DNA from: Acidobacteriota bacterium
GTDB taxonomy: Bacteria > Acidobacteriota > Terriglobia > UBA7540
Direction of reading: 5' to 3'
Assembly: GCA_021789565.1 (NCBI GenBank)
Contig: JAJYJL010000766.1
Location: 1-5,042, forward strand
DNA: 5,042 bases
Shown: positions 2,483 through 4,958 of the stretch, one piece after another
Position numbering within the stretch: the stretch's first letter is position 1
Layout of the letters: each line of letters starts with the position of its first letter
Position numbers and translations under genes: made by a program
Notes under the pieces: model-generated
Told to the model about the DNA's origin: nothing
Seen by the model: the letters and a program-made list of their open reading frames with translations, nothing else
Databases searched by the model: none

Positions 2483-3454
2483 TTACGACAGGGATCCACC
2501 CAGGAACGTTTCCGTCAACCTTGAGGCAGGGAAGGAAATGTGGGCCCTTACAGCATTCAGTTCCTGTGCGCCCACGTTGGTGGGCCGGAACAGTCCGTAC
2601 GTTGAGGCGACCCCGTTTTCAAGGAAGCATTGCCGCACGGCGCGGATGGCCGGGCCGGAATTCTCGCGGCTCAAAATGCCGACCCCCGGCCCGGACCCGC
2701 AAACAAAAATGCCGATCACTCCGTCCGCGCGCACTTGGAGGGCCTCTTCCAGCCCCGGCACAGCTTTCCGCAGAACGGGAGCTCCGCTGGATTCCAGTCC
2801 GGCGATGTTGCGCCTGCCCGACTGGGCAAACAGTTCACCGAGCGTCCGGACGCGCTCAAAATGCGATGCTGCGTCCTGCTCGGGGATTTCGTCCGGATTC
2901 GTGCCTGCAGTAACCGCAACGACTGACTCGAACTCAGGAGTAACCACGCTCAGCACAAAATCTCCCGGCACAAAAGTTCGCCGCAGGGTCAGCGCGGAGG
3001 CTTCACCCGTGCAAGCCACAAAACCGCCGTGCCAGGCGGCGCGCAGGTTGTCCGCGCGCGCTTCATAGATCTGTGCCAGCTCGAACAGGGTCTTCTCATT
3101 CAACTGCAGTGAGTAGAGCCTGTCTGCGGCAATCAATCCCGCCAGCACTGCGGCGGTGCTCGATCCCATACCCACGCCCACCGGGACTGAACTGAAAACC
3201 TCAAAATCAGCGCCGCTGAATTCCAGCCCTTTCAAATGGAGCGCCGCCTCCATCGCCCGCACCACCAGGTTGTGGCGGTCTCGCGGGACAAGATGGCCAT
3301 TCTCGCCAAAGTACCGGATGCCCACACAGCCATCCAGCCTGGGCGTAACTTTCACATTGAACATGGCGTCGAGCGTCACCGCAGCGCAATTCATCGCGCC
3401 GGCAAAGTTCCCGACGGTGGCGGGCACCCTGACAAGGATGGACCTCGGCCTCAT
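2483..3454 (-). CDS. thrB: GHMP-family kinase, homoserine kinase-like (ThrB-like), divergent substrate site
   Basis: A 323-residue GHMP kinase, closest by motif to homoserine kinase, which phosphorylates homoserine in threonine synthesis. Motif 1 is VRVPATVGN (8-16). The ATP-binding glycine-serine loop is PVGVGMGSSTAA (91-102). EARADN (131-136) stands where ThrB has EGHPDN, and CGSGPGVGIL (252-261) is the C-terminal motif. The start is well set: AAGGAG (3462-3467) lies 7 nt before the ATG. Length is slightly above the usual 300-310. The kinase fold is clear, but residues known to hold homoserine in ThrB look altered (N22 for Asp, R133 for His, L228 for Arg, no clear partner for the other Arg). 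Threonine synthesis is supported by position, next to thrS and downstream of dapD. A different small alcohol substrate cannot be excluded. I am sure of the kinase family and moderately sure of the ThrB role. Confidence 0.7.
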   Translation of the reverse strand: MRPRSILVRVPATVGNFAGAMNCAAVTLDAMFNVKVTPRLDGCVGIRYFGENGHLVPRDRHNLVVRAMEAALHLKGLEFSGADFEVFSSVPVGVGMGSSTAAVLAGLIAADRLYSLQLNEKTLFELAQIYEARADNLRAAWHGGFVACTGEASALTLRRTFVPGDFVLSVVTPEFESVVAVTAGTNPDEIPEQDAASHFERVRTLGELFAQSGRRNIAGLESSGAPVLRKAVPGLEEALQVRADGVIGIFVCGSGPGVGILSRENSGPAIRAVRQCFLENGVASTYGLFRPTNVGAQELNAVRAHISFPASRLTETFLGGSLS

Positions 3455-3635: not shown

Positions 3636-4112
3636 CTAGACGATCAATTCAAAAGAAGTGGAAACATGAATTGCGTCCTTCAGCGAGCGGGCCACCGGGC
3701 AGCGATCCATGTGCATGGCGTGAACGCGCTTTATGGTTTCGCGCTGTGATTCAGGCGCCTGCAGCTTGTAATGCGCGTGGATCCGCCGGATGACCAGAAC
3801 TCTACAGTCCACTTCGACTTCGCCAATAACTTCAGAGATCAGCTTGCCGTTGCTGGCGTCAATCTGGCGCGCTTCCAGCGCACCGCCAAAAAGACCGGTC
3901 AGTCAGCCGCCGGTTGCGGCCACCACATAGTCCAGCGTGGTTGCACAAGGCGGATATTTTTCAGGCGGGACCTTGTAATGCTCGGCAACTTCCGAATGCA
4001 CGCCAAATTGCACGGGCTTTTCGCTGCCGGGCAGATAGGCCAGCCTCATGGGGCCAACCTGGCGCTCAATCCGAACCCGGGGGGTGTAGGCGACCTCGGC
4101 ATTTTCCGGCAT
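3636..4112 (-). CDS. OsmC/Ohr-family protein, probable selenoprotein with Sec at codon 70 (in-frame UGA at 3903-3905)
   Basis: OsmC/Ohr proteins are cytoplasmic thiol peroxidases or related reductases that act with two cysteines. Read through one in-frame TGA, the frame gives 158 residues, a normal family length. The N-terminal half has VQFGVHSEVAEHY (34-46) and YPPCATTLDYVVAATGG (53-69). The TGA is codon 70, followed by LTGLFGGALEARQID (71-85) and then DRCPVARSLKDAI (136-148), which holds the second cysteine, C138. Homologues have Cys where the TGA stands, so the predicted active pair is Sec70/Cys138. The spacing of 68 is close to the 64-66 of Ohr and OsmC as I recall them. A SECIS-like hairpin follows the TGA. 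There is no frameshift and no second stop before TAG. The Shine-Dalgarno site GAGGTG (4118-4123) overlaps the dapD stop, implying coupled translation. The Ohr-type Glu ten residues before the first active site is absent (Leu60), so the substrate is unknown. A recent nonsense mutation is the main alternative. Confidence 0.85.
3863..3890 (-). promoter_or_regulatory. Bacterial SECIS-like hairpin downstream of the Sec UGA
   Basis: In the minus-strand RNA, GGUGCGCU (nt 19-26 after the UGA) pairs with AGCGCGCC (nt 30-37) around a GGA loop, giving 8 bp with one U-G pair. An alternative fold has a lower stem UGGCG/CGCCA (nt 15-19 with 34-38, extendable by two weaker pairs). It then has a left-side GUG bulge and a 4-bp upper stem CGCU/AGCG with the same GGA loop. 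That form resembles the fdhF element, which has a bulged U below a G-rich loop. The loop begins 27 nt after the UGA. This is inside the range known for bacterial SECIS elements, which need a G among the first two loop bases. Such elements bind SelB carrying Sec-tRNA. The hairpin lies within the coding sequence, as expected in bacteria. Confidence 0.75.
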
Positions 4113-4121
4113 GGCAGCACC

Positions 4122-4958
4122 TCATCGAAGCAGGTCTTCGAGTCTCACGGCCTGGTCAGTTTTTTCATCCCGGTACTTGATGATGACCGGCGTGTAAAGC
4201 GAGAGATTCCATTCCTTGCCACGCCCTCGCGTCACCGCGCGCGCTCCGGGAACCACCACCGCGCCCGGAGGGATCATCAACGGACGGCCGTCCTCGCGGC
4301 GATAGACCGTTTCGCGAACCAGGTCATAAACCGGCGTTGAACCCGTTAGAATCGTTCCGGCGGCCAGCACCGCTTCCCGGCCGACAACCGTGCCCTCGTA
4401 AACGCCGCAATTGCCTCCCACCAGAACGTCATCCTCAATGATCACCGGCAGCGCGCCCACCGGCTCCAGCACTCCGCCGATCTGCGCTGCCGCGGACAGG
4501 TGGCACCGCTTGCCGATCTGCGCGCAGGAACCCACCAGCGCATGAGAATCAACCATGGTCCCGTCGTCCACGTAGGCGCCTGCGTTCACGTACATCGGCG
4601 GCATGCAGGTTACGTTTTTGCCGATGTAACAGCCGTCGCGGATGGAAGATCCGCCTGGAACTACGCGCACATTCTGCCCGCCGGGAATCTGCTTCAGCGG
4701 ATACGTCTGCTTGTCGCGAAACTGGAAGCCGGCAGGCGGCATCTCCTCGGCACGACCGATCCGGAAGCCCAGCAGAATTCCCTTCTTCACCCAGGCGTTT
4801 ACCTTCCAGCCCGTGGCCGATTGCGCGTCGGGCTCCGCGGCGCGAACCTGGCCTTCATTCAAAGCCTTCTTGAACTCCTCAAAGGCCGTGAAATATTCCT
4901 CGCCGTATTGGTCCGATTTCCGCTCGAAAAGTTCTTCGATCTTTTGCTGTAGTGACAT
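4122..4958 (-). CDS. dapD: 2,3,4,5-tetrahydropyridine-2,6-dicarboxylate N-succinyltransferase
   Basis: DapD transfers succinyl from succinyl-CoA to tetrahydrodipicolinate in the succinylase route to meso-diaminopimelate and lysine, in the cytoplasm as a trimer. The 278 residues match the usual length (E. coli 274). An alpha-helical N-terminal part (about 1-95, with the [13 protein letters not shown] signature at 56-68) leads into a left-handed beta-helix of hexapeptide repeats (about 98-240). Family blocks there are [19 protein letters not shown] (122-140), VGSCAQIGK (142-150), [18 protein letters not shown] (160-177) and VYEGTVV (186-192). D137 and E188 are the acidic residues I would match to the catalytic pair reported for the family. 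A short C-terminal tail follows. An in-frame TGA 9 bp upstream of the ATG excludes a longer form. The Shine-Dalgarno site is weak. The OsmC-family gene starts 9 bp after its stop, so the two are very likely co-transcribed. Confidence 0.97.

What the first reader, a model, noticed from the sequence alone, without database searches (positions are those of the whole stretch)
3636..4112. OsmC-family gene with in-frame UGA at the redox cysteine: probable selenoprotein
The frame from ATG 4112 meets a single TGA at 3903-3905 and then stays open for 88 sense codons to TAG at 3636. The translation after the TGA continues the same OsmC domain, including the second conserved cysteine in DRCPV. The TGA falls exactly where homologues have the first active-site Cys (AATGG-x-LTG). 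The next base is C, as at the fdhF Sec codon. OsmC-like selenoproteins have, to my memory, been reported in metagenomic selenoproteome surveys, so the family is plausible. A random nonsense mutation would hit this exact residue only rarely. Standard gene calling would give a false 69-residue protein and lose the remainder.
Basis: partly seen in the sequence, partly recalled or inferred. Interest (0 to 1): 0.95.

Follow-up and report, generated by a model that had tools for sequence, protein, structure and literature searches.

The report
Selenocysteine-containing OsmC redox enzyme gene
A bacterial gene of the OsmC family, likely for a peroxide-reducing enzyme, carries a stop codon exactly where the active-site cysteine should be; all 59 other copies collected here, from two bacterial phyla, have the same codon, which is predicted to be read as the rare amino acid selenocysteine, so that ordinary annotation would cut the gene short.

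Summary
The minus-strand frame 4112-3636 is open but for one TGA (3903-3905) at the first redox position of an OsmC domain. A chance nonsense mutation is excluded: all 59 other loci collected, in Acidobacteriota and Chloroflexota, have TGA at that column. Both halves are under similar purifying selection (dN/dS 0.13 and 0.15). A hairpin 20-36 nt after the UGA covaries across 58 sequences, with silent changes that restore pairing. Of 56 relatives' genomes, SelA is found in 54, tRNA-Sec in 50, SelB in 49. The closest syntenic relative with the gene keeps the UGA, and its public protein starts at the CTG just after it. OsmC-like selenoproteins have been known from marine metagenomes since 2005, so the kind is not new. 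What looks new is the extent: a Sec-dominated OsmC subfamily in two phyla, with Gly at U+3 where the published motif has Thr, and rare Cys forms nested inside. Peroxidase function is inferred; selenium incorporation is untested, and the window's own genome is not held.

The parts
3636..4112 (-). osmC-like selenoprotein gene, 158 residues when the UGA is read as Sec (stop TAG 3636-3638)
   Evidence: PF02566 43.6 bits; OsmC/Ohr fold
3903..3905 (-). in-frame TGA, predicted Sec codon (residue 70)
   Evidence: TGA at this column in 59 of 59 other loci
3867..3883 (-). SECIS-like hairpin: 6-bp stem, loop UGGAA at 3873-3877 (26-30 nt after the UGA)
   Evidence: covariation in 58 sequences; covariance model R1, 59.6 bits here (in its training set)
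3699..3701 (-). second conserved redox Cys codon (Cys138, CPV)
   Evidence: Cys in 148 of 151 aligned rows
4118..4123 (-). GAGGTG, Shine-Dalgarno-like, five bases before the ATG, overlapping the dapD stop
   Evidence: read from the sequence
4122..4958 (-). dapD, upstream neighbour; it ends in an ordinary TGA stop (4122-4124)
2483..3454 (-). GHMP kinase, homoserine-kinase-like, downstream neighbour

Best explanation
The gene encodes an OsmC-fold protein whose in-frame UGA is likely decoded as selenocysteine, giving what would be a selenol-based peroxidase or thiol oxidoreductase. Predicted steps: the hairpin just after the UGA recruits SelB carrying Sec-tRNA(Sec), so the ribosome inserts Sec at residue 70 instead of stopping; Sec70, in the central helix, reacts with an organic hydroperoxide, and Cys138 resolves the oxidised selenium. 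Shown here: the conservation of the UGA, of the frame after it and of the hairpin, and the Sec machinery in relatives' genomes. Inferred: Sec incorporation itself, the reaction and its substrate.
For: TGA at the same column in 59 of 59 other loci from Acidobacteriota and Chloroflexota, down to 32% identity. dN/dS 0.133 before and 0.148 after the UGA, window against L089. Hairpin: 96.2% of cells pair, 21 double-change cells against 4.0 in shuffles (0 of 500 reach it); pair 27-35 is GC 34, AU 11, CG 8, GU 3, GG 2 of 58; Leu at the loop is CTG in 57 of 58. A model of the element finds it in L089, not in its training set, at 71.6 bits, and nothing above 13.5 bits elsewhere in 105,050 bases. In 56 genomes with the gene SelA 54, tRNA-Sec 50, SelB 49. 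dapD next door ends in TGA, so UGA is also an ordinary stop here. Fold: confident model (pLDDT 95.4) with OsmC/Ohr proteins as the best matches.
Against: The window's own genome is not held; SelD was not searched, and SelB was not searched in the closest relative. tRNA-Sec is not significantly enriched in Chloroflexota carriers (24 of 28 against 207 of 273, p 0.35). Single-sequence folding is only modestly better than shuffles (z -1.6 and -2.1 in the window), and two of five covariation measures do not exceed shuffles. L041 and L044 break pair 27-35. No Rfam match. Two of the three closest syntenic genomes lack the gene or its middle. No activity or selenium data.
Confidence: 0.9

Rival explanations
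1. A nonsense mutation or sequencing error at a Cys codon: the gene is a pseudogene, or its pieces act alone.
For: Decay does occur nearby: G647 lacks the gene and G676 has an internal deletion; L066 is truncated.
Against: Same TGA in 59 of 59 other loci; purifying selection on both sides; covarying hairpin.
Confidence: 0.02
2. UGA is read as another amino acid (Trp by suppression or a changed code, or Cys by a selC*-like tRNA).
For: 102 of 120 listed homologues show Trp at the column. UGA-reading tRNAs of other kinds, some from Acidobacteria, are described in PMC7609411 (passages).
Against: dapD next door stops at TGA. SelA, which makes Sec on the tRNA, is in 54 of 56 genomes. ARAGORN calls tRNA-SeC with anticodon TCA in 7 of 7 of the best tRNA loci checked. 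A hairpin of SECIS type would not be needed for a changed code, and homologues with another residue read from known sense codons have Cys (P0032 and others), not a mix.
Confidence: 0.05
3. It is a selenoprotein, but not a peroxidase: the OsmC fold here serves another redox or binding task.
For: The best fold matches include OsmC-like proteins without an assigned function in their titles (2onf, 1ml8, 2d7v), and identity to the Ohr/OsmC peroxidase structures listed there is 7-17%. No NCBIfam family matches. Flanking genes differ between the window and L004.
Against: The OsmC/Ohr fold is known for hydroperoxide reduction (established knowledge, not tested here), and both redox positions are kept.
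Confidence: 0.35

Closest known systems
OsmC-like selenoprotein of the Sargasso Sea and GOS surveys (PMC1088965, PMC2398784; passages and tables; listed again in PMC9312934 and PMC13188914, passages)
   Same: OsmC domain (PF02566 / COG1765), UGA in place of the Cys, SECIS-like hairpin with G in the apical loop right after it.
   Different: Published motif is UxxT, 3 and 5 marine sequences. Here Gly stands at U+3 in 58 of 58 and Thr at U+4 in 57 of 58, in Acidobacteriota and Chloroflexota genomes. The published sequences could not be fetched, so whether the two are one clade is not tested.
Ohr / OsmC organic hydroperoxide reductases (for example 1nye, 1ukk, 6ebg)
   Different: Cys instead of Sec; 10-17% identity for these entries; activity untested here.
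OsmC-like proteins 2onf (Ta0195) and 1ml8
   Different: 13% and 17% identity.

Membership tests
OsmC/Ohr superfamily (PF02566) | OsmC domain above the curated score | tested here: met
   43.6 bits against 27.5
OsmC/Ohr superfamily (PF02566) | OsmC fold | tested here: met
OsmC/Ohr superfamily (PF02566) | two redox Cys positions, the first replaced by the UGA here | tested here: met
   10 Cys at column 70 among 120 homologues; Cys138 column 148 of 151
OsmC/Ohr superfamily (PF02566) | hydroperoxide reductase activity | not testable with these tools
   needs protein
Bacterial selenoproteins | in-frame UGA at a redox column, kept in homologues | tested here: met
   59 of 59 other loci
Bacterial selenoproteins | stem-loop right after the UGA, small apical loop with G (as described in PMC1088965, passages) | tested here: met
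Bacterial selenoproteins | selA, selB, tRNA-Sec in the same organism | tested here: inconclusive
   window genome not held; in 56 relatives 54, 49 and 50; closest relative has tRNA-Sec and selA
Bacterial selenoproteins | selD in the same organism | not tested
Bacterial selenoproteins | selenium in the protein | not testable with these tools
   needs 75Se or mass spectrometry
Published marine OsmC-like selenoprotein set | redox motif UxxT | tested here: not met
   U+3 is Gly in 58 of 58; Thr at U+4 in 57 of 58, Leu in the window; motif from tables

The most novel reading that the evidence does not exclude
This is a Sec-first OsmC subfamily: selenocysteine is the ancestral and near-universal form in Acidobacteriota and Chloroflexota (U-x-x-G-T motif), Cys versions are later reversions, and the in-gene SECIS constrains the coding sequence so tightly that silent codon changes restore the stem when the amino acid beside the loop changes. 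Databases miss the subfamily because they split or mistranslate it.
Probability: 0.55. Interest if true: 0.6.

Novelty: new member of a known kind. Interest (0 to 1): 0.5.

Why it matters
It turns a handful of marine OsmC selenoprotein sequences into a wide family in two major, mostly uncultured phyla, and suggests that the usual order (many Cys forms, few Sec forms) is reversed here. The genes are misread in public data: begun after the UGA, or shown with Trp at the Sec column. A small protein with a covarying in-gene SECIS is a ready test bed for Sec decoding outside the usual model bacteria and for what Sec adds to an OsmC enzyme.

Tried and rejected
Phage records held no similar DNA. Rfam gave no match in the window up to E 1. 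Sequence search of the PDB with the single protein found nothing; with a profile it found 2onf at E 0.004 and a TRAP transporter subunit at 0.035, taken as chance. tRNA-Sec is not significantly enriched in Chloroflexota carriers (p 0.35). Gene neighbourhood does not tell the function: dapD and thrB flank the gene in the window and in L089, other genes in L004. Literature searches: OsmC + selenoprotein + selenocysteine (6 papers), selenoprotein / Acidobacteria / tRNASec / metagenom, three of four (20 of 56 listed), OsmC + selenocysteine (10 papers), Sec-utilizing / Chloroflexi / Acidobacteria / selenoprotein, two of four (15 of 5,493 listed), organic hydroperoxide resistance + selenocysteine (7 papers). 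In these listings I saw no paper on Sec-OsmC in Acidobacteriota or Chloroflexota; I read passages only, of seven papers, and figures and supplements were not available. The 2006 genome survey PMC1794560 (passages) counts 3 selenoprotein families in each of the two phyla and does not hold the word OsmC in its main text. That the Trp homologues are truly Trp was set aside because every locus whose DNA I could read across this column has TGA; the DNA behind them was not seen.

Full report
OBSERVATION. On the minus strand the frame from ATG 4112 runs 69 codons to TGA 3903-3905, then 88 codons to TAG 3636-3638. Read through, the product is a 158-residue OsmC-domain protein (PF02566, 43.6 bits). The gene starts 9 nt after the stop of dapD, with GAGGTG five bases before its ATG. 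dapD ends in TGA, so UGA is also an ordinary stop next door.

CONSERVATION OF THE UGA. A scan of named genomes gave four relatives, three Chloroflexi and one Acidobacterium, all four with TGA at the column. A search of 297 Acidobacteriota genomes gave 27 loci in 26 genomes at E<=1e-12, each with one TGA inside; 301 Chloroflexota genomes gave 29 loci in 28 genomes, each with one TGA. Identity to the window protein runs from 73% down to 32%. With overlaps removed and the closest relative added (L089), 59 other loci were collected, and 59 have TGA at the same column. One, L066, is truncated shortly after the hairpin. Cys forms with E above 1e-12 in these genomes would not have been seen.

SELECTION. 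Window against L089: dN/dS is 0.133 over the 69 codons before the UGA and 0.148 over the 88 after it. Against L004 synonymous sites are near saturation (dS 3 and more), so the ratios there, 0.044 and 0.064, are rough.

HAIRPIN. An ungapped alignment of 58 loci from the UGA on (L066, duplicates and L089 are not in it) shows a 6-bp stem, columns 23-28 with 34-39, and a 5-nt loop beginning UG in 58 of 58. RNAalifold finds this helix with one more pair. Pair 27-35 has 19 double changes in 58. With identical rows merged (57), 96.2% of cells pair and 21 cells are double changes against 4.0 expected, reached by 0 of 500 shuffles; the covariation score is also reached by 0 of 500; the number of pairs with double changes (2 against 1.2, 106 of 500) and of further pair types (7 against 6.9, 405 of 500) do not stand out. 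The codons show why this matters: Ala at codon +8 is GCG where codon +11 is GCG, GCA in 11 of 14 rows where it is GTG (the other 3 are GCG, a G-U pair), and GCC in 8 of 8 rows where it is GGG. So a silent change follows an amino-acid change and the stem still pairs. Leu at the loop is CTG in 57 of 58, though Leu at codon +5 uses six codons. Misses: L041 and L044 have G-G at pair 27-35. A covariance model finds the element in L089 (71.6 bits) and L066 (67.2 bits), neither in its training set, and nothing above 13.5 bits elsewhere in 105,050 bases, and nothing in L090 or L091. As a control, the 44 nt after the dapD stop fold no better than shuffles (z -0.15) against -1.6 for 44 nt after this UGA; four relatives gave -1.1 to -2.4, and 48 nt of the window -2.1. 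Single-sequence folding is thus weak evidence; the case for the hairpin rests on covariation.

SEC MACHINERY. The window's genome is not held. In the 56 genomes with the gene (G635 not counted): SelA in 54, SelB in 49, tRNA-Sec in 50. Each of the 56 has at least one of the three and 45 have all three; they are unnamed assemblies in many contigs as a rule, and completeness was not shown, so a miss is not an absence. tRNA-Sec is enriched among Acidobacteriota carriers (24 of 26 against 154 of 271, p 0.0002) but not significantly among Chloroflexota carriers (24 of 28 against 207 of 273, p 0.35). Kinship was not corrected for. SelD was not searched.

CLOSEST RELATIVES. A DNA search of 299 genomes of the class gave three with 83% identity over thrS. 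G635 keeps dapD-osmC-thrB-thrS with the UGA (81% protein identity); G647 has no osmC between dapD and thrB; G676 has a gene with an internal deletion that takes out the UGA and hairpin. All three have tRNA-Sec and SelA. The public protein P0108, from a contig of the same length as G635's (184,679), equals the part of L089 after the UGA from residue 2 on, with M written for the CTG codon: the annotation starts the gene right after the predicted Sec codon.

EVOLUTION. In a quick tree of 91 rows (59 Sec, 10 Cys, 22 of the 102 Trp rows) the labels Sec and Cys need 4 changes, of which starred branches force at least 3; shuffled labels need about 9.6. Under a midpoint root the Cys rows lie inside the Sec part, which suggests Sec to Cys reversions; the root is not tested and several long branches meet.

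FUNCTION. The predicted structure is confident (pLDDT 95.4), made from 41 chosen rows, and OsmC/Ohr proteins lead the fold searches. Residue 70 is in the helix 59-81 and Cys138 just before the helix 139-143, much as the two redox cysteines of Ohr lie (recalled). A selenol peroxidase for organic hydroperoxides is the best guess; nothing here tests it.

KNOWN OR NEW. OsmC-like selenoproteins were reported in 2005 from three Sargasso Sea sequences and in 2008 from five, motif UxxT, and are listed in reviews of 2022 and 2026. The present family has Gly at U+3 in 58 of 58 rows, so it does not fit that motif as printed. Whether it is a separate clade could not be tested. I file it as a new member of a known kind, with the wide, Sec-dominated subfamily as the novel reading.

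Noticed in passing
L090 and L091 (G647:C52, G676:C116): Two close relatives with the same dapD-thrB-thrS order have lost the gene (G647) or its middle with the UGA and hairpin (G676), though both keep tRNA-Sec and SelA.
   Followed up: partly
297 Acidobacteriota and 301 Chloroflexota genomes: tRNA-Sec above the family's cut-off in 178 of 297 and 231 of 301 genomes, so Sec use looks common in both phyla.
   Followed up: no
L023 and L047 (G084); L073 and L076 (G579): Two genomes carry two Sec-OsmC loci each; in G084 they fall in distant branches, in G579 they are near copies.
   Followed up: no
proteins (P0002 and others): 102 of 120 listed homologues show Trp at the Sec column, which looks like a mass translation artefact of metagenome gene calling.
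   Followed up: partly
L041 and L044: These two loci keep the UGA but break the common hairpin at pair 27-35; they may use another fold of the same stretch.
   Followed up: no
window 2483-3454: The GHMP kinase matches homoserine kinase best, but under the curated cut-off (96.7 against 168.25 bits), so its function is not sure.
   Followed up: no
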